Source: a virus. Taken from it: 64,000 nt of DNA. Below are positions 16,560-29,811 of the stretch, one piece after another. The notes under the pieces are model-generated. The model saw nothing but the letters and a program-made list of their open reading frames with translations, searched no databases and was not told the DNA's origin. Where the stretch lies: positions 1 to 64,000 of the IMG/VR virus record IMGVR_UViG_3300028840_001302; one strand, 5' to 3'. Both the position numbers and the translations under genes were made by a program. How positions within the stretch are numbered: the first letter of the stretch is position 1; each line of letters starts with the position of its first letter.

Positions 16560-16877
16560 ATGATTCCTTTCGCTTTTATGAAAACGAAAGTTTTTAGTGC
16601 CGACAACCCTGATGTATTGGAACAGGCATTGAATAAATTCTTTAAAGAGAACCCCGCGCACGGGTTCCTGTCTTTCAATACCCTTCCGAATTTTTTTCAG
16701 GTCGGTAACGTAGCGGAGTCGAAATACTGCGGTATCCTCTGCTATAGCGAAGGAGGTTTTGAGGAAGCACCGGACGAAATCGAAGATGAGGATGAAGAGG
16801 GAAGCGAAGAGTATGAAGCAGAAGAGGAAGAATACGAAGGTGAAGAACAAGCGAAAGGAGGTGGGACCGATGGCTAG
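16560..16877 (+). CDS. Hypothetical protein with acidic tail
   Basis: 105 residues. Residues 1-68 form a small domain. From about residue 69 it is nearly all Glu/Asp/Gly (EEAPDEIEDEDEEG onward). First gene of the packaging operon, preceded by GGAGG. Acidic tails in this position can bind basic partners; no family recognised. Confidence 0.65.
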   Translation: MIPFAFMKTKVFSADNPDVLEQALNKFFKENPAHGFLSFNTLPNFFQVGNVAESKYCGILCYSEGGFEEAPDEIEDEDEEGSEEYEAEEEEYEGEEQAKGGGTDG

Positions 16878-17451
16878 AGGTAGGCCAGTGAGAGGTCACG
16901 CATATAACAAACAGGATAAAAACAGGTTCGCGGAACTTGAAAATCTTGGATGTTATAAAAAGTACGGTTTTGGGAACGGATATTTCCGGGATGAGGATGA
17001 GAGGGAGAAGAAAGATATGCTTCCTTCCCCTTGTGCCAAATGTCCTAAAAATGCGAAATGTTATAAAAAGACGGAACAGGCCGCGAATCCTTCCGACCCG
17101 AAGGAAATGCTCGTGGTACTCGGTCTTAATGAAATCGAAGGCACAACCGCGAGAGTTATGAGTGACATTCGGGCAGATGTAGAGGAACTTCCTCCCGTTG
17201 CCGGGATGAGAGATATGCAGGAGTTTTATAAAATATCTCCGTGTAAAGGTAAGTATGGTTTCGGGACCGGATACTGGTTCTCAGATGAAGTACCAATATG
17301 CGGGATTTGTGGTCTTCAAAAAAGTTGTTATGCTGAATTCCAGAAACAGCTTATCGAAGGTATCCCGCTTATCGAAAATTATGTGAAGAATATGTTGGAT
17401 GGAGCGCAAGCAAGAAACGATGGCGAAGTCTTCACAAAAGAAACAAGTTAG
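16870..17451 (+). CDS. Zinc-binding protein with duplicated Cys module, next to terminase
   Basis: 193 residues. ATG 16870 has an excellent AAAGGAGGTGG SD and overlaps the previous stop. It contains two related modules: KYGFGNGYF followed by PCAKCPKNAKCY (about 37-75), and KYGFGTGYWF followed by ICGICGLQKSCY (about 130-160). Each can bind zinc and both share the order KYGFGxGY, CxxC, CY. The position just before the large terminase is where a small terminase subunit is usually found, but no standard small-subunit fold is visible; this is a candidate DNA-recognition partner only. Confidence 0.6.
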   Translation: MARGRPVRGHAYNKQDKNRFAELENLGCYKKYGFGNGYFRDEDEREKKDMLPSPCAKCPKNAKCYKKTEQAANPSDPKEMLVVLGLNEIEGTTARVMSDIRADVEELPPVAGMRDMQEFYKISPCKGKYGFGTGYWFSDEVPICGICGLQKSCYAEFQKQLIEGIPLIENYVKNMLDGAQARNDGEVFTKETS

Positions 17452-19801
17452 AAAAAAATGTCTGTGCGGATGTGGTAAACTTGTCCCAAAGGCAAAATCT
17501 GGAATGAAGCAACCTTCATTCTGCCGGGGACACCATCCGATGCAGAGATTGAATAAAACCAAAAAAGAGAAAATTAAAAAGAGAAAAAAGAAGAAACCGG
17601 ATGCGAAGAGACGCAACCCTAAAAATCCGCAAGAGCAAGTTGATAAAAGTAGAATATGTATATATAAAAAACCAGATGGCTCTCCCTGCAAAGCGATTGC
17701 ATTAAAAGGGAAAGATTACTGTACTTTCCACTCCCCCGCAAACATGAAACAGAAAAGCCCTGTCCTTAAAAAGGGAGAGTATTTAGGCTCCCCTCTGAAG
17801 TCCGTAGATGATGTAATGAAGGACGGTAAACCGTTTGAGCTTCGCTGGTTTGAGAAGCACTATATGAAGCGGATTTATGAGTCGGTTTCCCCATACTTCG
17901 CAGCAATTAAATCCGCGCAAGTTGGTATATCTGAATATGAGTTAATGAAAATAATATGGTTCATCCGTAAATATGGAATGACCGCACGGCGTAGGGTCAT
18001 GCTCACTCTTCCAACCGCCACGGATGCAAAAGACTTTTCTAAGGACCGCATTGATTCTATTCTTTGGGAGAACCGTAAATTATTCGGACACGAAAAAGAA
18101 AAAAGGAAGAAGTGGACCGATAATGTCTCTATGAAAGAAGTTGCAAATTCCTTAATATTCATACGCGGTACTAAAGGTAAAGCACGGCATACTTCGACTC
18201 CTTCTGATATGAATATCCATGATGAAGTTAATTTCTCCGATGCTGTCACGATGAGTAAATTTGCTTCGCGTCTAGGAGCTTCAGAATTTCAATGGGTCAA
18301 TTGGATTTCCACTCCTACTTTTCCGGGCGAAGGTATTGACGAAAAATTCCAAGACGGATGCCAATTTCATTTCCACGTCCCCTGCACGGATTGTGATAAT
18401 TGGGTAAAGCTTTGTTGTGAACCTCTCGAACACATGGACCACGAGAATGATATTTGGGCTTGTGAAAAATGCGGAGGGGAACTTGATAGAGCGGCAGGAA
18501 GATGGATTGCAGAGAGGCCCGAACTCATTGGAGAAAAAGAAAGCTTTCATATTACGAATCCGATGCGTCTTAATGAGACACCCTCCTCTATAATGGCGAA
18601 AAAAGATGATTATAAGCGTGAGGCCGATTGGTACAATTTCGTTCTCGGATTAACATTTGAGTCAACAGGCAATCGTATAGCACCTCTCGCTTTGGAAGCA
18701 TGTACGAATGCCGCATATAAATTACATCTGCGTGATGATAGACCTTGCACGATGGGCGTTGACCAATCTTCCAAATGGCATCACATCCATATTTCTTCGT
18801 GGGATGCTAAAGCTCGTAGGCAAACCGTATGGGTAGAGAAAGTTGATACGGAAGAATCATTTGATTCAACTCTCGATTTACTTATGCGGCAGTTTAATAT
18901 TGTGATAGCCGTTATTGACGGTTCTCCGAATTTAAACTCCGCGAAAAAATTTGCTAAGAAACATAAAGGTCGTGTCTTCGTACACTTTCATAATGATAAA
19001 ATGTTTGATGATGTCCAATGGGACGAAAAAGAACATAAAGTCGTTACAAATAAAACGCAGATGATGGATAAGCTCTCTGAGGAAGTTAAACGTCTCGAAT
19101 GGATTTGTCCGGACCATCCGCGTACACGGGAACTTAAAAAGCATATTAAAAATATGCGGAGACGTGCCGGGGATGAAGAGGAAGAAAAAGATGCACGTTG
19201 GGTGAACGTGGGAGAGGACCACTTCAATGATGCGTGGATGTTTGATTTTATTGCCAAGATTCGTGCAAAGGAATTTTACGAACCCCAAGTAAGAATCTCC
19301 ACCATAGGTCCGGATGTGGACCAAAAAGAGTCCGAAGATATCGTAATGGAGCTAATCAAGGTCGATGATGTTGAGCAGATTTTTTCGTATTTTATTCAAA
19401 AAAATCGTGGAATGTTCGTTGCCGACATGGTATTATCTCCATCAGCGAAGGAAGTTTTCATAAATCTCGAAAAATCCTTCGGAGTCAAAAAAATATTGGA
19501 GGTATCAAAACCCTCACCTCATAACGCAAAATTTCTATCAGAGTTGATGGAGTCTCAAAACCATGCGGAAGAAGAAGACGCAAACAGGGACTCGGACGGG
19601 GAAGAAGAAATCCCGGACTACGACCCGAACCCCCACGAAGTCTTTGAAGACGAAAAACACAACGAAAGCTTCAAAAAAAGCTCCTCCAAAAAGGCCGCGA
19701 AAAAGAAAGCGAAGAAAAAGTCCAAACGTGGAAATACTCCCGGTGTCGCAAGGGATACCACCACAGGGGTTGCAATCACCGCAATCACCAATGATAAGTA
19801 G
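17420..19801 (+). CDS. terL: Terminase large subunit (GpA-type) with N-terminal zinc fingers
   Basis: About 793 residues. It packages DNA: ATPase plus nuclease. Near 165-172 is SAQVGISE, a GpA-type Walker A variant; NIHDEVNF is Walker B. The nuclease half has GVDQSS, VIAVIDGSP and FNDAWMFD acidic residues. A CxxC pair (CTDC, CEKC) sits between the halves. Unusually, the first 110 residues carry two extra cysteine clusters (CLCGCG...FC.GHH and CIYKKPDGSPC...YCTFH). The tail from about residue 715 is acidic, then Lys-rich. Start ATG 17420 versus 17399 is uncertain; neither has a strong SD. Confidence 0.85.
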   Translation: MAKSSQKKQVRKKCLCGCGKLVPKAKSGMKQPSFCRGHHPMQRLNKTKKEKIKKRKKKKPDAKRRNPKNPQEQVDKSRICIYKKPDGSPCKAIALKGKDYCTFHSPANMKQKSPVLKKGEYLGSPLKSVDDVMKDGKPFELRWFEKHYMKRIYESVSPYFAAIKSAQVGISEYELMKIIWFIRKYGMTARRRVMLTLPTATDAKDFSKDRIDSILWENRKLFGHEKEKRKKWTDNVSMKEVANSLIFIRGTKGKARHTSTPSDMNIHDEVNFSDAVTMSKFASRLGASEFQWVNWISTPTFPGEGIDEKFQDGCQFHFHVPCTDCDNWVKLCCEPLEHMDHENDIWACEKCGGELDRAAGRWIAERPELIGEKESFHITNPMRLNETPSSIMAKKDDYKREADWYNFVLGLTFESTGNRIAPLALEACTNAAYKLHLRDDRPCTMGVDQSSKWHHIHISSWDAKARRQTVWVEKVDTEESFDSTLDLLMRQFNIVIAVIDGSPNLNSAKKFAKKHKGRVFVHFHNDKMFDDVQWDEKEHKVVTNKTQMMDKLSEEVKRLEWICPDHPRTRELKKHIKNMRRRAGDEEEEKDARWVNVGEDHFNDAWMFDFIAKIRAKEFYEPQVRISTIGPDVDQKESEDIVMELIKVDDVEQIFSYFIQKNRGMFVADMVLSPSAKEVFINLEKSFGVKKILEVSKPSPHNAKFLSELMESQNHAEEEDANRDSDGEEEIPDYDPNPHEVFEDEKHNESFKKSSSKKAAKKKAKKKSKRGNTPGVARDTTTGVAITAITNDK

Positions 19802-22619
19802 CCCCTTCGTACCAACTCTTAGAGAGATGGTCGAAAACATAACCCTTCAAAAAGCGGAACTCGCAAAAAATATTGCTGAAGGTGAACGGCGCGGAAAAAT
19901 AACTTCCGGACGCGGAGGTTATTATCAGCAAAGAGTCGAAGTCGCCATTCAGGATATGTACCTTGCGCTTTACCGAAAACATCCGTGGGTAAAAACTGCG
20001 GTTAACCAAATCGCACGAGCGGTACTCGGTACACACTTCCAGATAGTCCCTTCTCGATATGTAAAAGAGACGCAAGCAAACCCCGACCCCGACCAGAAAA
20101 AAGTTTTGATGGATTTGATTTATCATCCGAATCCGGACGAGACACAATCCTTCTTAATCTTTTGGGGTCTAGCCCGTCTTAAAATTTGCGGCGAAGTTTT
20201 TTACGAAGTCGAACCTGATGGAATGAATAATCCGAGAAACGTCTATACATTGCAAGGCCGTGTACTGGTTAACGTGGACCCATTCACCGGAGAGTTTAAA
20301 GACCCGAAGTACATACAATACCTTAATCGTACTGGCGCAATGTACGGGACTCCTTTTGAAGATGAAGAAGTCATTCACATAATTGACCCGAATCCTATAG
20401 GCGGTATTCGTGGTCACTCTGATATGGAAGCTTTAGAGCTTTCCTTAATAACCGATATTTTCGCGCAACAGTTTAATAAGAATATTTTCGTAAACGCCGG
20501 GAAACGAACTCTGATATTCCAACTCCAAAAAGGATTAAGCCATACCGAAGCGGAACGTAACAGACATGAAATCCGGCAGCATTATCAAGGTGCGGTCAAA
20601 GCGCATTCGCCTTGCCTGATAATCGAAGGTGAAGTGGACATTAAAGACTTGCAAGAAAAACTGCAAGATATCGAATTTATAAAAGGCCGCGAACAGGTGC
20701 GACAGGAAGTTCTCTCTACCTTCGGAGTTCCTCCGACAAAAGTAGGTCTCGAACAGAAAAATGTCGATGCCACGGAAGCGGATACTCAGTTCTCGAAAGA
20801 TACCATTCGTCCAGTAGTTGTAACTTTACAGGACGGGTTAAATCATTTCTTCGCAACAAAATATGGTATCACGGATTGGGAACTGAAACTCAACTACGTT
20901 GAAACGAAAGATGAAAGAAGGCTCGCCCGACTTCTCGAAGTTATCGGGAAACGCGGATATGCCACGATTAATGAGGCAAGAGAATATCTCGGTCTTGCAA
21001 GACTTCCGGATGGAGATGTTATCCGTGTATATAGTCAGAAGACCGGGACTTTTATAGACCCATTAGACCCTCCCGAACCAATAAGGCCGGATGTACCAGC
21101 GCAACAACAACCTCCGGGGGAGGGTGATACCGAAGCTCAAGATGCTTTGCGGGACTTGCTTGACGATGGCGGTTCTCTCGAAGACATCATGCAACTCTTA
21201 GGTGATATGTTTACAGAGGATGAGCTTCGGGAGGTAGCTCCTGATTTTTTTACGAGCAAGGACGTTCAACAGATTGGGACTGACTACGCTAAAGAATTAG
21301 CGGAGGAAATAAGTAAAATACAATCAGGAGTAATGAAGAAGTTTGAAAATCTCTCAAAAGATGTAAAGTTAGATGATGGCATAGATTTCGAGTTCCCTGA
21401 AATTCAAATAGATATGTTCCCAAGTGGCAGCTTCCGTGTCTCTACAGTCGGCGCGTTAAGACGTGGGTATATGGAAGGCCAAAGGGAACTAGCTCGGAAA
21501 TTGGGACAGAAAGTAAAGTGGTCTCTCGTTCCGAAGTCCGAGTTCAAGATGATGAAGTCCCGTGCGAACAGAATTGCTCGGAGATTGCAACGAGACCTAT
21601 TCGCAGGGGAACCGAAATCAGGAAGACTCGGAGTAAAACGTGCGTTGTTAAGAGCGGAAAAAGAAGGTTGGTCAATGGACAAACTTCGGACTACGCTCGA
21701 AAGATATTTTGAAGAGAGTAAGAGTTGGAAAGCTCTACAAATAGCCCGGACTGAAATCATGCGCTCTTACTATATGGGTATGGCAAGAGCGGCAAAGAAA
21801 ATGAAATACGGTTTCGCTTATATTCAGTTGGGAGCGAAACCCTGTTCATTCTGTTCTGCGGCGGCGGCAAATTTGGGCGTGAATAAGCTCGAAGTAATTT
21901 TAGATTTCTTCGCAGGACATCACCCGAATATTGATTGTATGATGGTGGTCGTGAAAAAAGCAGGGAAGGATACACCACCTTTAAAGAAAGTTCCGGAAGG
22001 TTTCAAACCTATGGCAAATATGTGGACCGCGAATCTAGGGTATGCCGTTGATGATGAAGGTTGGGGTAGCGTGGCACTCGCGGAAGAACATACTGAAGTC
22101 TGGAAACGTATCGGGGATATTGAAAAAAATCTTCACTATCTCACACGTTTCGATTTTATGGAAAAAAGCGATATTCCGGAACTCGCTAAAGCATTGGAAA
22201 AGCTTCCGGATTGTCTCGTATCGAGAGGTGTATTCGAGCTTATAAATTTTGTCGAATTTCATAACTCGCTTCCCGGAAAAATGGCAGGGAAATATTTACC
22301 GGATGCGAGATACTTCCAACTTTCGCGTTACAGGTCGAAAGATTGGGGTGCTGTCTGGACGGAACTCGTTGGGAGGTTGATGCACGATGTATTGAATTTC
22401 ACGGACCGTGAAGTTCGTATTGACGAAATTTTATCTTCAACATACGATGATGAGATACTCGAACATCTTAGAGCGAAGTACAACATGATAGGAAGAATGA
22501 CCGCGAGTGAATTTGCGAAAAGCTTCAGGCTTTTCTTCGAGTCACCGACTCTTCTTTCTCAAGAGTCGCCTGATATATACGATTTGGTTTCCCGGCTTGC
22601 AAGTCCGATGATGGAGTAA
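19563..22619 (+). CDS. Portal protein fused to MuF head-morphogenesis domain
   Basis: 1018 residues if started at ATG 19563 (GGAG ten bases upstream); 942 if started at ATG 19791, which lacks a nearby SD. The portal domain covers about residues 85-490 (HPWVKTAVNQIARAVLG; GIRGHSDMEALE; FGVPPTKVG). A MuF-type minor-head domain follows (about 640-800), with ARTEIMRSYYMG and PCSFC ... HHPNIDC. The last 200 residues contain TELVGRLMHDVLN and ASEFAKSFRLFFESP, which look like a zincin metallopeptidase that lost the HE of HEXXH. The portal forms the DNA channel; MuF proteins enter the capsid. The long start overlaps terL by 239 nt and gives a very basic N terminus. Confidence 0.82.
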   Translation: MRKKKTQTGTRTGKKKSRTTTRTPTKSLKTKNTTKASKKAPPKRPRKRKRRKSPNVEILPVSQGIPPQGLQSPQSPMISSPFVPTLREMVENITLQKAELAKNIAEGERRGKITSGRGGYYQQRVEVAIQDMYLALYRKHPWVKTAVNQIARAVLGTHFQIVPSRYVKETQANPDPDQKKVLMDLIYHPNPDETQSFLIFWGLARLKICGEVFYEVEPDGMNNPRNVYTLQGRVLVNVDPFTGEFKDPKYIQYLNRTGAMYGTPFEDEEVIHIIDPNPIGGIRGHSDMEALELSLITDIFAQQFNKNIFVNAGKRTLIFQLQKGLSHTEAERNRHEIRQHYQGAVKAHSPCLIIEGEVDIKDLQEKLQDIEFIKGREQVRQEVLSTFGVPPTKVGLEQKNVDATEADTQFSKDTIRPVVVTLQDGLNHFFATKYGITDWELKLNYVETKDERRLARLLEVIGKRGYATINEAREYLGLARLPDGDVIRVYSQKTGTFIDPLDPPEPIRPDVPAQQQPPGEGDTEAQDALRDLLDDGGSLEDIMQLLGDMFTEDELREVAPDFFTSKDVQQIGTDYAKELAEEISKIQSGVMKKFENLSKDVKLDDGIDFEFPEIQIDMFPSGSFRVSTVGALRRGYMEGQRELARKLGQKVKWSLVPKSEFKMMKSRANRIARRLQRDLFAGEPKSGRLGVKRALLRAEKEGWSMDKLRTTLERYFEESKSWKALQIARTEIMRSYYMGMARAAKKMKYGFAYIQLGAKPCSFCSAAAANLGVNKLEVILDFFAGHHPNIDCMMVVVKKAGKDTPPLKKVPEGFKPMANMWTANLGYAVDDEGWGSVALAEEHTEVWKRIGDIEKNLHYLTRFDFMEKSDIPELAKALEKLPDCLVSRGVFELINFVEFHNSLPGKMAGKYLPDARYFQLSRYRSKDWGAVWTELVGRLMHDVLNFTDREVRIDEILSSTYDDEILEHLRAKYNMIGRMTASEFAKSFRLFFESPTLLSQESPDIYDLVSRLASPMME

Positions 22620-24222: not shown

Positions 24223-27200
24223 ATGTTTACGATACAATTTTTAGGAACTCGTGGACTCGTTCCTCAAAGCTCGGAACTTCACAAACAGTTCTCCGCTATG
24301 ATAATCGAGTGGAAGAAACAAGCGGTCCTTTTTAATTTCGGGCTGACTTGGAAAGATGCCCCTCTTCCTGAAGTGGATGCAATCTATCTCTCACACGGTC
24401 ATATAGACGACATCGGAGGCTTGCAGGACCGCACGGTTGATATTCCGATTTACTGTTCCGAAGCAACGAAAGAACTTTTACCAAAAAGTTTGAAGGCATC
24501 GGATATCCGCATCGTTCCCCGTGACGGAAAAATCGAACTCTTGGATTGGGAGGTGGAATGCTTCCCTGTCAAACATGCGACTTACGCACCAGTGACAGGA
24601 CTTGCGCTCTACATCGACAACAAAAAAGTTGTTGTACCTTTCGATGTTCTCGAAATACCGGAGCTTGATATTCTTTTTGATACGGACGTTTTTATCGCGG
24701 ATGGCGACCAACTCGAACAGGATACTCGCAGGAGAGACGAAGATTCCGGTGAGATGCACGGACACGGTTCACTTCAGAAACAACTCCGCTGGTGTAACTC
24801 ATTTAAAATTCCTGTGATGCTTATTCATCATTTCGGCAAAGACGCTATCAAAATGAGTCCGGAAGATTTACTTGATTGGCTTAATGAATCTTCCAAGAGG
24901 ATTGCTCCGAGAACCCTTGCGATTCCAACATGGGACGGGAAGACAGTTCAGGTTGAAGGGAATAATGTTCTTTGGGAACGGATGAACGGCGAAGTCGTGA
25001 AACAGAAAATGCCGAAACCCGTTGACCCGGAGAAGCCCGGAGAATTTTTTATCCCGCATCCACAAAGACTTTCAAAAAATTTACTCGAAGAAGCGAGAGC
25101 GGTGTCAACGCAATTGCTTTCTTCAGGTCGTGATAACATGGTTCTTTACGAACCGAAACTACGGTATCTTCCATATATCTACACGAAGGCCGGAAAAAAT
25201 ATCGCGGCCTTAAGTGATGGAATGTTCAAACAGATTAAGCCGATGGTATTGTCTTACCCGGATTGCCTCACCAACACCGAAGAAGTGAATCGTCTCGCAA
25301 AGGAATTCGATTTCGCCACGGAAGATTTTCCTCTTATACTGGCTTTTCTGAAGAGATGTAAAGTTGTGAAGGCGAGTTCTTTTCTCCGCAACTTCAATGC
25401 AGAAAGATTAAGTGATTACATCGTGCTATCCACTTCGGAAGAATTGAAGTGGCCTTCCAGTATGGAACATATCCAATTGGCAAAAATGGAAGTCTCCGAA
25501 GAAGTTCTTATGAAGAGACCGCTTCCAATCGGAGGAGGCCGGGGATTCATGCTCGATGTTCTCAGTCAGTTTGAAGACTTCAGTAAATATGATAAATATG
25601 TTGAGCCTTTCGCTGGCGGGGCTACATTATTCTTCCACAACATCGAAAAACTTAAAGGTAAGACGGTAGTGTTGAATGACACTGACCCTCTCGTTGTAGC
25701 GTGGTTACGTTTCCTCCGTGATGGAACGGATGAGCAACTTGAAAAGCTTCGCGGTTTCGATTGGAGACCGAAGAAGGAAACTTTCAAGAGGCTGAAGAAC
25801 ACCGCAGCGACAACGATGCTCGAAAAAGTTTACAAACTTATATACACAACGATATATTCGTGGCAGGGATTGAGAGACTCTTTCTCTGCCGACAGGGAAG
25901 AACGTATCCATAATCTTCTTTCGGACAAAAAAATAAACAGGTTCCGTGAAGCAATGAAAGCAATTAATCCGACCATCACTCAAGAGGATGGTTTGGATGT
26001 AATGAAAGAGTACGACAGTCCGAGAACATTCTTTTATCTTGACCCGCCGACAAAACTTAATTTTTCAAAGGCATTCAAGACGGAAGAATTTCAGAATGCG
26101 GAAAATCTTGAGAAGTTCTTCAACTTACTCGCGCATGTCGAAGGTGATTTCTTCTGGACCACTAATCCGACTGACCGTTATAAAAAACTTCTCACGAGAA
26201 AATTCCTTGCGAATGGTCGTCACCTTTATACTTTGACACGGAAGGGGAAAGATTCGTACCCGGAAATAATTGTATCGAGCATGGAACTCCCTTTCAAAGA
26301 CACACGGAGATGGAAAGTCGGAACGGCTTTGAAAGATGTTCGGTGGAGAGCAGACCTTAATGCGCTCATGTATAATAATCATAAATACCGGGAAGATATT
26401 TTCCTTAACATCCCCAAAGTAGAGCTTCGTTCCGGGTTGGCTGAATTGTCCACGGATGATACATGGCTCTTCGGTGTGAGCAACATCCCGATAGAAAAAA
26501 TAGACCCGGATTGGTTGCACAGTCTTGATGTAACCGAACTGATGATGATTCACGCAAGACTCCATGCACTTTATTACCAATGGAAAAAAGAAGGCAAGAC
26601 GATTGAGCCTCTCGTGAACGCACACCAATTTGTTGCGAATGAAATCCGGGGACGTGGACTCGAACACCGTATCTCTACGGACATTGACCGTCTATCTAAA
26701 AATCAGAAGAACGCATCGGACTTTGATATAGAAAAGGAAATGCAGGACTTTTTAACGATGCGTCCTTATGCTTACATCGTGGGTTCTATCGTTGTGAACG
26801 GTTTCGGGAGAGATGTGGATATTTTAACTCGTGATACACGGTATAACGAAACCTTCAGCGATAACGTGCAGACATATTTAAAGCACATGGGAGTCCCGGT
26901 ACACATTTTCCCGGACCCGATAGGACCATTCACGTCATACAAGCCTCTCGTGTCGATGGGTTACTTCCGTGAAGTAAATAAGAAAGCGGTTCCGGAGGAG
27001 CTTTCACAATATTGGTACGAAGATGAAGACAGATTTTGCTATCTCTCGGATGTCGTGGAAAAACTTCCGGAGTTTTACGAGAGTAAGCCTTGCGTTTTTT
27101 ACTCAGTAGATAAGGATACTTACGTCCTGCATCTGCTCTCCGATGAAAACACGGATATTAAAGCACTTAAATTCCGTTTATCGTGGCAACTTAATGAGGT

Positions 27201-29811
27201 TAAGCATCGTTTTGAGGAAGTAACCGAAGCTCCGGAGGGAGCCAAGCCACTTTTCACTCGCGGTTGGGTTCCCGAAGATGCCGGGGAAATCATAACGATG
27301 AGTGATGCAGAGAAAAAGGATATCCAAAAAGCGGAAAAAGACGAGACTGAAGATGTCTCTAATGGGAAAGTTAGTGCCATTGTCGTTAATTCTCAGGAAA
27401 CTAAGACCGATGGTGTTTATTTATACGATTGCGCTTTGGAATTCGGTGAATTTAAACCGACACCTTCCGCACTTGTTACCGTTGAGGGAAGAAACTACGC
27501 TAATGTAGGAAGATTCGCTTCAGTTATAAAATTAAATAAAGGTGATATTATCGAATTAAGCTACAGGACTCTCGATTTCGTGAGATTCCCGAATGATTTT
27601 TCAAAAATCACGCTCCGTAAACTTCAATTCGAGAATAAGTCCGATGTGATTGACACATTCGCTTCCGCTCTGAAGAAAGCGGAGTCCTTCGATACGCTTT
27701 CAAAGCAAAAATTGAAGGCGGGAGAGAATAACCTTGAGACTTTTACGCAGCAAGACCTAGTTAAAAGCATTGAGAAGTACGACCCGTCTGAAGTAGCGGA
27801 TGATGTACTATCCGATGATTGGAAAATCGTGAATGCGTGGTTTTCTACGGTTCGGCAGGGCAAACAATTTAAATATGATGCCTCTACCGTCCTAAGTGTA
27901 GGTAAAAAAATATTCCGTGAGTTAGTCCGGAGGGAGAAAGTAACATTTCGTCCGGAAAATCTCTCCCGGAATTCACTCGAATTCCTGCAAAGAATTCTCT
28001 CAGAGGAAATCGACAGGGGTATGGTGTTACCAGACTCGCAAGCAGAGAGGATTATGAAAGGTGAAAAGAAGGCCGTAGTAAAGTCAAGGCCATTTGATGT
28101 ACCCACTTTCATACTACTTACTGGTTCAGACGGAAAAGTTTATGGTTGGCTCCGCTTTGGCTTTACTCGGCTTAATACCCCGAAGCAATTGCAGGGGAAG
28201 GTCAAGGAAGGTGAGACATTTGCGAAAATAACGAAGGAAGAGTTTGAGGCACTCCGGGATATCCATAATATTACGGACGATGAGAAAGAAAAATGGTGGC
28301 CCGGAAGCAACGACCTTTATATTTATCCAATCAGAGAATTCGTTAAAATAGAAACGAAGAATCTGATTCATCTTCCGAAGGATAATGAAGGTTTCATCAA
28401 GGGTGTCTTCATAGAAGACCAAGTTGGTTCTAAAATCGAGAATTTTCTTCCCGAAGAACGGACAGCCGTGGAACTTCAGGAATCCAAACTCGTAATTCCT
28501 CAGACAGTGAGGAACGAAATTAATAAGTGGAGAAATATTACACGGAAAGAAGTTGCCAAGAGAAGTCCATCGAGTTTCCCTGAATACTTCTTTGTGATTG
28601 AGAATCATTTCCGTGGAAAATCTTCACATCTCGACCTGAGAATCATGCAGCCGGGGAAAGAATACCTTAATGGGTTCACGGTTCTCTCCGAAGTTCCGGA
28701 CACGATAAAGAAACCCGTGCTGACATTGAAAGAGGCCGCGAAATTCTCGGACCTTGATAATCGCAAACTTTGGAAATTCCATCCCGACATGGACCCCAAT
28801 AAGCATGTGCGTGTTGAGATGAAAGAGAAACAACCTCCTGAATGGTTAAAGATGGTCCGGAAAGTTATACCGCCGGGAGGTCCGGGCGCAACGAAGGAAT
28901 TCCCCGGTGTATTTTGGGGAGTTGATTGGGGCATCCTGTATCCGGGAGTCACGGACAAAGGCAGATTCAATTTGCATAAGCCGTGGTTCCAAGAATTCTT
29001 TTTGTACGGAAAAAAATTCAAGGGACGTTTGGTTCTCAGGTATATCTCCGGCGATTCTCCGCATTGGGAAGCATGGATGGCGAAGGACCAGACACCGTAC
29101 CTTATGACTTCGGGAGCGAGAAAGAAAAAAGATTACATTCCACCTAAAGATGTCTCCGGATTATCTCCGGATTTTGAAGCTTTGATTCCAACTGAATTGA
29201 AGTGGTGGGGTCCGGATGCGCCGGATAATAAAGATGAAATCTTTAAGCGGATGGAGCAAGCTCGTCTTCTTCTCCGGGACAAAGGTGTTTTGAAAGAAGC
29301 GGAGAACAAAGATAATGTCGTAGGTCTCGCTAAAGATGCAGAATTCACTGTTCACTATCTCTGGTCGAAGGGTCCAGATGTGGTCCGTAAACTTCGACAG
29401 GAAGATTTCATTATAAGAGTCCGTGAGGGGAATGAAGTCACTACATGGAATTTGGGTAAGGATTCACCTTTCTGGATTAAGAGAGGTCAGGCTTACAACG
29501 TACAAAATGAAGTGACGAAAAATTCTCCTCCCGACAAACATTCACCCGTGGATTGGATGGATTGGGAAGGTGAACTTCCACCGAGTCACCCGCTTAATCC
29601 AAACAAGGAACTTCCTCTCAACGTGGAGGTTCTCGATGCAGGGGATGTGGATATAATCTCGGAAACGTCAGAATCCCTCCATTATCGCTTCAATGGCAAG
29701 AAATTAAAAGGGGACTTCATTTTTGTGCGGGAAGACGCTAATACCCCCAATTGGAGGTTCCAGAAGGGAAAATTGCCAAAAAAAGCAGAATCGACAGTAA
29801 GTAGTTTCTAA
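24223..29811 (+). CDS. Giant multi-domain DNA-enzyme protein (MBL, Dam-like, NTase-like, OB-like, LigD-PE-like)
   Basis: 1862 residues, one uninterrupted frame. Domains in order: metallo-beta-lactamase fold 1-210 (SHGHIDDIGG at 57-66, Asp160, His180/182, His202/203); Dam-like methyltransferase 432-690 (EPFAGGA 461-467, NDTDP 485-489, DPPT at 607-610 in place of DPPY); nucleotidyltransferase-like 849-920 (GS 854-855, DVDIL 864-868); OB-like beta domain about 1049-1136; the domain shared with the preceding gene 1293-1375 (LRFGFT, YIYPIRE); and two parts resembling the LigD 3'-phosphoesterase domain, 1453-1610 (HFRGKSSHLDLR, GKKFKGRLVLR) and 1700-1845 (GKKLKGDFIFVR). Lying between portal and scaffold, it may be a capsid-internal protein delivered with DNA; that is inference. 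Confidence 0.75.
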   Translation: MFTIQFLGTRGLVPQSSELHKQFSAMIIEWKKQAVLFNFGLTWKDAPLPEVDAIYLSHGHIDDIGGLQDRTVDIPIYCSEATKELLPKSLKASDIRIVPRDGKIELLDWEVECFPVKHATYAPVTGLALYIDNKKVVVPFDVLEIPELDILFDTDVFIADGDQLEQDTRRRDEDSGEMHGHGSLQKQLRWCNSFKIPVMLIHHFGKDAIKMSPEDLLDWLNESSKRIAPRTLAIPTWDGKTVQVEGNNVLWERMNGEVVKQKMPKPVDPEKPGEFFIPHPQRLSKNLLEEARAVSTQLLSSGRDNMVLYEPKLRYLPYIYTKAGKNIAALSDGMFKQIKPMVLSYPDCLTNTEEVNRLAKEFDFATEDFPLILAFLKRCKVVKASSFLRNFNAERLSDYIVLSTSEELKWPSSMEHIQLAKMEVSEEVLMKRPLPIGGGRGFMLDVLSQFEDFSKYDKYVEPFAGGATLFFHNIEKLKGKTVVLNDTDPLVVAWLRFLRDGTDEQLEKLRGFDWRPKKETFKRLKNTAATTMLEKVYKLIYTTIYSWQGLRDSFSADREERIHNLLSDKKINRFREAMKAINPTITQEDGLDVMKEYDSPRTFFYLDPPTKLNFSKAFKTEEFQNAENLEKFFNLLAHVEGDFFWTTNPTDRYKKLLTRKFLANGRHLYTLTRKGKDSYPEIIVSSMELPFKDTRRWKVGTALKDVRWRADLNALMYNNHKYREDIFLNIPKVELRSGLAELSTDDTWLFGVSNIPIEKIDPDWLHSLDVTELMMIHARLHALYYQWKKEGKTIEPLVNAHQFVANEIRGRGLEHRISTDIDRLSKNQKNASDFDIEKEMQDFLTMRPYAYIVGSIVVNGFGRDVDILTRDTRYNETFSDNVQTYLKHMGVPVHIFPDPIGPFTSYKPLVSMGYFREVNKKAVPEELSQYWYEDEDRFCYLSDVVEKLPEFYESKPCVFYSVDKDTYVLHLLSDENTDIKALKFRLSWQLNEVKHRFEEVTEAPEGAKPLFTRGWVPEDAGEIITMSDAEKKDIQKAEKDETEDVSNGKVSAIVVNSQETKTDGVYLYDCALEFGEFKPTPSALVTVEGRNYANVGRFASVIKLNKGDIIELSYRTLDFVRFPNDFSKITLRKLQFENKSDVIDTFASALKKAESFDTLSKQKLKAGENNLETFTQQDLVKSIEKYDPSEVADDVLSDDWKIVNAWFSTVRQGKQFKYDASTVLSVGKKIFRELVRREKVTFRPENLSRNSLEFLQRILSEEIDRGMVLPDSQAERIMKGEKKAVVKSRPFDVPTFILLTGSDGKVYGWLRFGFTRLNTPKQLQGKVKEGETFAKITKEEFEALRDIHNITDDEKEKWWPGSNDLYIYPIREFVKIETKNLIHLPKDNEGFIKGVFIEDQVGSKIENFLPEERTAVELQESKLVIPQTVRNEINKWRNITRKEVAKRSPSSFPEYFFVIENHFRGKSSHLDLRIMQPGKEYLNGFTVLSEVPDTIKKPVLTLKEAAKFSDLDNRKLWKFHPDMDPNKHVRVEMKEKQPPEWLKMVRKVIPPGGPGATKEFPGVFWGVDWGILYPGVTDKGRFNLHKPWFQEFFLYGKKFKGRLVLRYISGDSPHWEAWMAKDQTPYLMTSGARKKKDYIPPKDVSGLSPDFEALIPTELKWWGPDAPDNKDEIFKRMEQARLLLRDKGVLKEAENKDNVVGLAKDAEFTVHYLWSKGPDVVRKLRQEDFIIRVREGNEVTTWNLGKDSPFWIKRGQAYNVQNEVTKNSPPDKHSPVDWMDWEGELPPSHPLNPNKELPLNVEVLDAGDVDIISETSESLHYRFNGKKLKGDFIFVREDANTPNWRFQKGKLPKKAESTVSSF

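What the first reader, a model, noticed from the sequence alone, without database searches (positions are those of the whole stretch)
17420..17770. Large terminase with its own N-terminal zinc fingers and no evident small subunit
Two Cys/His clusters (CLCGCG...FC.GHH and C...PC...YC.FH) precede the ATPase in one polypeptide. The second resembles the stand-alone finger proteins often found near small-terminase genes. No small terminase is visible here, so site recognition may be built into TerL or supplied by the Cys-module protein just upstream.
Basis: partly seen in the sequence, partly recalled or inferred. Interest (0 to 1): 0.5.

Follow-up and report, generated by a model that had tools for sequence, protein, structure and literature searches.

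The report
Phage packaging motor with zinc fingers
A bacterial virus carries, fused to the front of its DNA-packaging motor protein, two small zinc-finger-like modules, one of them of a kind that other viruses keep in a separate gene just before the motor gene, where the helper that chooses the DNA usually lies; whether the fusion replaces that helper is not known.

Summary
ORF 17399-19801 (+, 800 aa) is an intact-looking GpA-type large terminase (PF05876; phrog_675) whose first ~138 residues hold two Cys/His clusters: C21-x-C23-x-C25 ... C42-x2-H45/H46, and C87-x9-C97-x10-C108-x2-H111. Finger 2 belongs to a family of short C-x9-C-x10-C-x2-H modules: a profile built without the window finds it at 9.5e-14, once in this record. 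The nearest solved structure, by profile and by predicted fold, is the DNA-binding CCCH finger of eukaryotic Mcm10 (weak scores). In metagenomic phages the same finger begins proteins encoded immediately before TerL (4 of 21 groups), a TerL of another family (L219), and portal proteins (L216, L273, L275). It also occurs away from terminases. Finger 1 is a common phage CxCGCG...F..GH module. No fingers were found on the TerLs of 80 relatives fetched (two 5'-truncated). No small terminase was recognised in the 98-kb record, but several close relatives have a separate one, the record may be incomplete, and the slot before TerL is filled by a duplicated Cys-module protein of unknown family. So: a real domain fusion, not found in print in my searches; 'TerL does its own site recognition' is plausible, not shown.

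The parts
17399..19801 (+). Large terminase (TerL), GpA type, 800 aa; alternative start at 17420
   Evidence: PF05876 54.3 bits over cut-off 25.6; phrog_675 2.2e-86; model resembles solved large terminases
17459..17536 (+). Finger 1, residues 21-46, CLCGCG...FCRGHH
   Evidence: sequence; profile of 93 phage CxCGCG..F..GH modules hits it, whole-sequence E 3.4e-4, best domain 0.0012
17555..17614 (+). Lys/Arg-rich linker, residues 53-72
   Evidence: sequence; partly helical in a low-confidence part of the model
17657..17731 (+). Finger 2, residues 87-111, C-x9-C-x10-C-x2-H
   Evidence: profile built without the window: 47 bits, 9.5e-14; MCM10 is the best PDB match by profile and by Foldseek
17909..17935 (+). 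Walker A-like motif KSAQVGISE, residues 171-179
   Evidence: K171, Q174, G176 invariant in 37 sequences
18221..18226 (+). Walker B / catalytic D275 E276
   Evidence: invariant in 37 sequences
18383..18472 (+). Internal zinc ribbon C329-x2-C332 ... C355-x2-C358, shared by the TerL family and distinct from the N-terminal fingers
   Evidence: C329, C332, C358 invariant, C355 nearly so in 37 sequences; invariant also with four named phages
18761..19219 (+). Acidic residues of the nuclease part, D455, D507, D607
   Evidence: invariant in 37 sequences; their role as nuclease ligands is inferred from established knowledge of terminases
19316..19798 (+). C-terminal extension, residues 640-800, ending acidic then Lys-rich
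   Evidence: mostly low confidence in the model; the phrog_675 match ends at residue 636
16870..17451 (+). 193-aa protein with a duplicated KYGFGxGY ... C-x2-C-x5-C module, overlapping the TerL start: occupies the small-terminase slot
   Evidence: sequence; no family match (Pfam only chance-level), no relative
19563..22619 (+). Portal protein with C-terminal head-morphogenesis-like part
   Evidence: PF04860 139.6 bits; phrog_2662, phrog_2468

Best explanation
The N-terminal ~138 residues of this TerL are an added DNA-contacting arm: two small zinc-binding modules joined by a Lys-rich linker. Finger 2 is a Mcm10-like CCCH finger of a family that some phages attach to packaging proteins: to the protein encoded just before TerL (small-terminase position), to the portal, and here and in L219 to TerL itself. 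Most likely mechanism (inferred): zinc-held fingers bind the phage DNA, probably with low sequence specificity, and keep it next to the ATPase and nuclease so that cutting and loading can start. In effect the DNA-binding half of a finger-type small subunit is supplied in cis. Shown: the ORF, the motifs, the domain family and its distribution in what was sampled. Inferred: zinc binding, DNA binding, role in packaging.
For: Clusters real and in frame. Finger 2 profile hit 9.5e-14, single copy in the record. The best three PDB matches of the finger profile are MCM10 chains, E 0.0025-0.024; Foldseek ranks 1-4 are all MCM10, best E 0.084, prob 0.96; Mcm10's finger is part of a DNA-binding surface without sequence preference (PMC5333062, passages). 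The carrier lies immediately upstream of a TerL in 17 of 186 open viral carriers, 4 of 21 sequence groups (TerL confirmed by families for six of them); also in L023, which was not picked for the finger, directly before a GpA-type TerL. Same finger at the N-terminus of L219, a TerL of another family, and of portals L216, L273, L275. phrog_10899, named 'terminase small subunit', matches the finger part of L118, L224, L254, L273 and L275, weakly (E 0.0004-0.05).
Against: No binding data. The whole arm has low confidence in the full-length model. MCM10 matches are weak (VIA Z 3.2 over 43 residues). PF09329 scored 17.7 bits, under its cut-off 28.8. Finger 2 also occurs away from TerL: a 140-member group where it is near the C-terminus and 0 of 140 are next to a recognised TerL; Thermus phage Cumys among replication genes; many bacterial chromosomal proteins. 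For most other groups no TerL was seen in the locus at all. Finger carriers were found with patterns modelled on the window, so their Cys/His spacing, and part of the profile score, is imposed by the search.
Confidence: 0.5

Rival explanations
1. The phage has a normal but unrecognised small terminase, encoded elsewhere or in a missing part; the fingers only add affinity to TerL.
For: Five close relatives (ranks 2, 3, 4, 7 and 12; two identical) have related small proteins just upstream that account for the five phrog_6299 'terminase small subunit' matches (L015 is named there; the other four are inferred). Small terminases diverge fast, and that of phage E217 lies about 58 kb from TerL (PMC9611059, passages). 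The record may be a fragment. Only 37 of its proteins were scanned against PHROGs. L219 has an HTH-looking protein directly before its finger-bearing TerL (by eye).
Against: No match in the record to phrog_10899, PF03592, PF05119 or PF16677 at E 1, nor to a profile of the relatives' small terminases over six frames (best E 1.4).
Confidence: 0.3
2. The duplicated Cys-module protein at 16870-17451 is the small-subunit equivalent and works with the TerL fingers.
For: It lies in the small-terminase position and overlaps the TerL start; 193 aa is about the usual size (15-21 kDa in passages of PMC9611059); two repeated Cys modules.
Against: No family or structure match and no relative found, so neither conservation nor co-occurrence with TerL could be tested; no fold was predicted for it.
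Confidence: 0.3
3. The fingers are a mobile decoration with no packaging role, of the sort phages attach to many proteins.
For: Finger 1 is found mostly on proteins of about 180-300 aa (119 open carriers, median 263 aa, none carrying finger 2), which by eye look like endonucleases; finger 2 occurs outside packaging genes; several other proteins of this virus are Cys-rich.
Against: In six of 21 viral groups finger 2 is fused to TerL or portal or encoded directly before TerL, and the same was seen in the unselected locus L023.
Confidence: 0.2

Closest known systems
GpA-type large terminases, PF05876 / phrog_675 (e.g. SPO1 gp2.11)
   Same: ATPase motifs, conserved acidic residues, internal zinc ribbon
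   Different: None of the relatives fetched was seen to have the two N-terminal clusters; also a longer C-terminal tail
Mcm10 CCCH zinc finger (PDB 3ebe, 3h15, 7y01; Pfam zf-primase PF09329)
   Same: Cys/His order, near-identical spacing, best profile and fold match
   Different: Below the Pfam cut-off; no OB-fold seen beside it; phage context
Finger proteins of the DUF5763 (PF19067), phrog_3678 and phrog_10899 kind, including small-terminase-slot proteins of L139, L146, L214, L215, L224, L254, L023
   Same: Same finger type, near the N-terminus
   Different: There it is on a separate small protein. Matches to these families are weak and below Pfam's cut-off, some carriers (L146, L215) match none, and DUF5763 was not reported for the window's own finger
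L219 terminase
   Same: N-terminal finger 2 plus Lys/Pro-rich linker on a TerL
   Different: Another TerL family (best phrog_979), no finger 1, apparent intein in the Walker A motif
Herpesvirus terminase pUL28/pUL56
   Same: Zinc fingers in the packaging complex (PMC9611059, passages)
   Different: Fingers on the other subunit; analogy only, sequences not compared here

Membership tests
GpA-type large terminase | PF05876 above curated cut-off | tested here: met
   54.3 vs 25.6 bits
GpA-type large terminase | Walker A-like, Walker B and nuclease acidic residues conserved | tested here: met
   K171/Q174/G176, D275/E276, D455/D507/D607 invariant in 37 sequences
Mcm10/zf-primase finger PF09329 | score above curated cut-off | tested here: not met
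   17.7 vs 28.8 bits: called Mcm10-like, not filed as a member
Mcm10/zf-primase finger PF09329 | same fold | tested here: inconclusive
   Foldseek ranks 1-4 MCM10, E 0.084-0.57; VIA Z 3.2, rmsd 3.8, 43 aligned
Phage finger-2 family described here | profile match independent of the window | tested here: met
   9.5e-14 with a profile of 19 other fingers, members having been picked by a pattern modelled on the window; 3.0e-20 with a profile that includes the window
CxCGCG...F..GH module (finger 1) | profile match | tested here: met
   E 3.4e-4 for the sequence, 0.0012 for the domain, over six frames of the record; moderate
DUF5763 PF19067 | score above curated cut-off | tested here: not met
   not reported for the arm at E up to 10
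Single-subunit (small-terminase-free) terminase | no small subunit in the complete genome | tested here: inconclusive
   no profile match in 98,341 bp; completeness unknown
Single-subunit (small-terminase-free) terminase | TerL alone binds and cuts the packaging site | not testable with these tools
   needs biochemistry

The most novel reading that the evidence does not exclude
A single-polypeptide terminase: the DNA-recognition domain of a finger-type small subunit has moved into TerL, and the same Mcm10-like finger moves among small-subunit, TerL and portal, so phages can place DNA capture on any part of the packaging machine.
Probability: 0.22. Interest if true: 0.75.

Novelty: new variant of a known kind. 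Interest (0 to 1): 0.5.

Why it matters
How a packaging motor chooses phage DNA is usually credited to a small subunit, often with an HTH, that is hard to recognise by sequence. A finger that recurs on small-terminase-slot proteins, on large subunits of two families and on portals would be a sequence handle for finding such recognition parts, and this TerL would be a compact protein in which recognition, cutting and pumping could be studied in one chain.

Tried and rejected
Rejected: two tblastn hits that seemed to cover the fingers (L087, L089, query 8-619) run through stop codons in front of their TerL and are coincidence. Rejected: fingers as a general GpA trait. Rejected as evidence: 'no small terminase near TerL' by itself, since the named phages with this TerL type whose neighbourhood I viewed also have none annotated there (two of these records begin at or near TerL).

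Led nowhere: direct searches with TerL, the N-terminal arm or the Cys-module protein for close relatives (one search gave 4 chance-level matches); NCBIfam; PDB by sequence with the arm or whole TerL (one chance-level match each); full-length model for the arm. Finger-bearing small proteins L224 and L215 have no match in the phages collection. In one search (25 of 1,071 records listed) no listed match to the L219 terminase starts before query residue 74, so its finger is not seen on them. Paper searches for terminase with zinc fingers, DUF5763, fusions or zinc-binding extensions listed no title or abstract reporting such a TerL; of those papers I saw listings, and passages of one. Subscription papers and preprints are mostly not held.

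PHROGs saw 37 of the record's proteins (7, 10 each). Alignment A3 used 36 of the 80 relatives, A2 67 upstream ORFs from 70 loci. Pattern matches without an open frame: 2 of 188, 3 of 125. Some of the 21 groups are single short frames (e.g. L130, L181, L191) that may be chance.

Full report
What is there. The window is bases 1-64000 of a 98,341-bp virus record. ORF 17399-19801 encodes an 800-aa large terminase: PF05876 at residues 168-363, phrog_675 at residues 151-636 with E 2.2e-86. Its best structural matches are solved large terminases (D6E, Sf6, T4, HK97, P74-26 among them). ATPase and nuclease residues are invariant among 37 aligned sequences, so the enzyme looks intact. The portal gene follows at 19563.

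The arm. Residues 1-138 precede the conserved core and hold two Cys/His clusters with a Lys-rich linker. Permutation of the same residues never gave both clusters in 200,000 trials. These clusters are separate from the internal zinc ribbon (C329, C332, C355, C358), a general feature of this TerL family.

Relatives. tblastn found 455 phage records with similar TerLs; in the 60 listed, the match starts no earlier than query residue 85, and the ten phage TerLs read have no such arm. Of 80 viral-contig relatives, two are cut at the 5' end (L021, L046) and none of the others was seen to carry the clusters; profiles of both fingers over six frames of 90 TerL loci hit no TerL. The arm is therefore peculiar to this virus among what could be fetched; close relatives were not found, so how old it is cannot be told.

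Finger 2. DNA patterns for its spacing were scanned in viral contigs and bacterial genomes. Of 188 viral loci examined (189 held), 186 have it in an open frame, falling into 21 groups by sequence outside the finger. The largest group (140; I call it marine, a guess that comes from no call) carries it near the C-terminus of small proteins; 0 of 140 are next to a recognised TerL, though 14 have one in the same locus. In four groups the carrier ends within 700 bp upstream of TerL or overlaps it: 12 of 22 in one group, 3 of 3 (L146, L214, L215), 1 of 2 (L139), and L217 alone, by eye a broken member of the L146 group; 17 of 186 in all. TerL identity was confirmed by PHROGs or Pfam for L139, L146, L214, L215, L224 and L254, the rest by tblastn to these. 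L219 is itself a TerL (phrog_979, 7.5e-28) with the finger at residues 8-32. L216, L273 and L275 are portal proteins (phrog_9232) with the finger at the N-terminus. In the remaining groups no TerL was recognised in the locus. In the unselected TerL set one GpA relative, L023, has a finger protein of 222 aa overlapping its TerL start, and Thermus phage Lalka27a has one about 8.6 kb upstream of TerL on the other strand, three genes before the portal.

Against a packaging-only family: Cumys has such a protein among replication genes with no terminase within the 10 kb viewed; Montesquieu and ct4oC223 have one ending 1.6-2.3 kb before TerL, not adjacent; 60 of 62 bacterial stretches are open, mostly small proteins, whose neighbours were not scanned.

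Is it a Mcm10-like finger? A profile of 20 fingers (window included) has MCM10 as its top three PDB matches, E 0.0025-0.024. The AlphaFold model of finger 2 has pLDDT of about 84-93 over its first 30 residues; Foldseek ranks four MCM10 chains first, with E-values of 0.084-0.57, and VIA-align gives Z 3.2. Mcm10's finger helps bind DNA without sequence preference (PMC5333062, passages). Each line is weak; they agree. The Cys/His spacing, a Gly and the residues around the last Cys were imposed by the patterns, so the 47-bit profile score (next best frame 5.4 bits) partly reflects the search itself; the MCM10 matches and L023 were not selected that way.

Finger 1. Many resemble phage endonucleases by eye; they were not scanned.

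Small subunit. None was recognised in the record: 37 own proteins against PHROGs, four families over the record, and a profile of the relatives' small terminase. But 5 of 67 upstream ORFs of relatives match phrog_6299 'terminase small subunit'; these are L015, L016 (identical), L017, L020 and L025, ranks 2, 3, 4, 12 and 7 or so of the relatives. So the TerL family can use small subunits, and in this virus the slot holds the 193-aa Cys-module protein instead. Small terminases are diverse and can be far from TerL (PMC9611059, passages), so absence is not proven.

Verdict. An unusual domain fusion on an ordinary enzyme family, with a plausible function supported by where the same finger is found elsewhere, and one parallel case in another TerL family (L219).

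Noticed in passing
L219:567-3356: A TerL with an N-terminal finger 2 and what looks like an intein splitting the Walker A motif (GGKG ... SGKS; weak LAGLIDADG_3 match below cut-off).
   Followed up: partly
L216:4972-6579, L273:922-2517, L275:2812-4377: Portal proteins that begin with the same zinc finger; the 100-kb record of L216 holds a second, weaker finger match at 82000-82113 (G001).
   Followed up: partly
window 16870-17451: Protein with two copies of a YGFGxGY ... C-x2-C-x5-C module; no copy in 3.95 Mb of other loci read.
   Followed up: partly
window 24223-29811: 1862-aa ORF that by eye joins several enzyme-like parts (metallo-hydrolase-like start, methyltransferase-like part, a HLDLRI motif), just after the portal and a D12 methyltransferase gene; not scanned.
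   Followed up: no
window 7968, 16759, 19563, 63130; L008 3388, 12792, 16080; L009 4502: Lys-rich N-termini: 8 of 96 gene calls of 100 aa or more have at least 12 Lys in the first 40 residues.
   Followed up: partly
L094-L213 (most): Large group of small phage proteins with finger 2 near the C-terminus, often followed by a protein of about 234 aa (phrog_399 'structural protein' in L099).
   Followed up: partly
L283-L344: Bacterial genomes (Phycisphaerae, Zixibacteria, Acidobacteria and others by record title) encode small proteins with finger 2 and, by eye, a shared part resembling that of some phage small-terminase-slot proteins.
   Followed up: no
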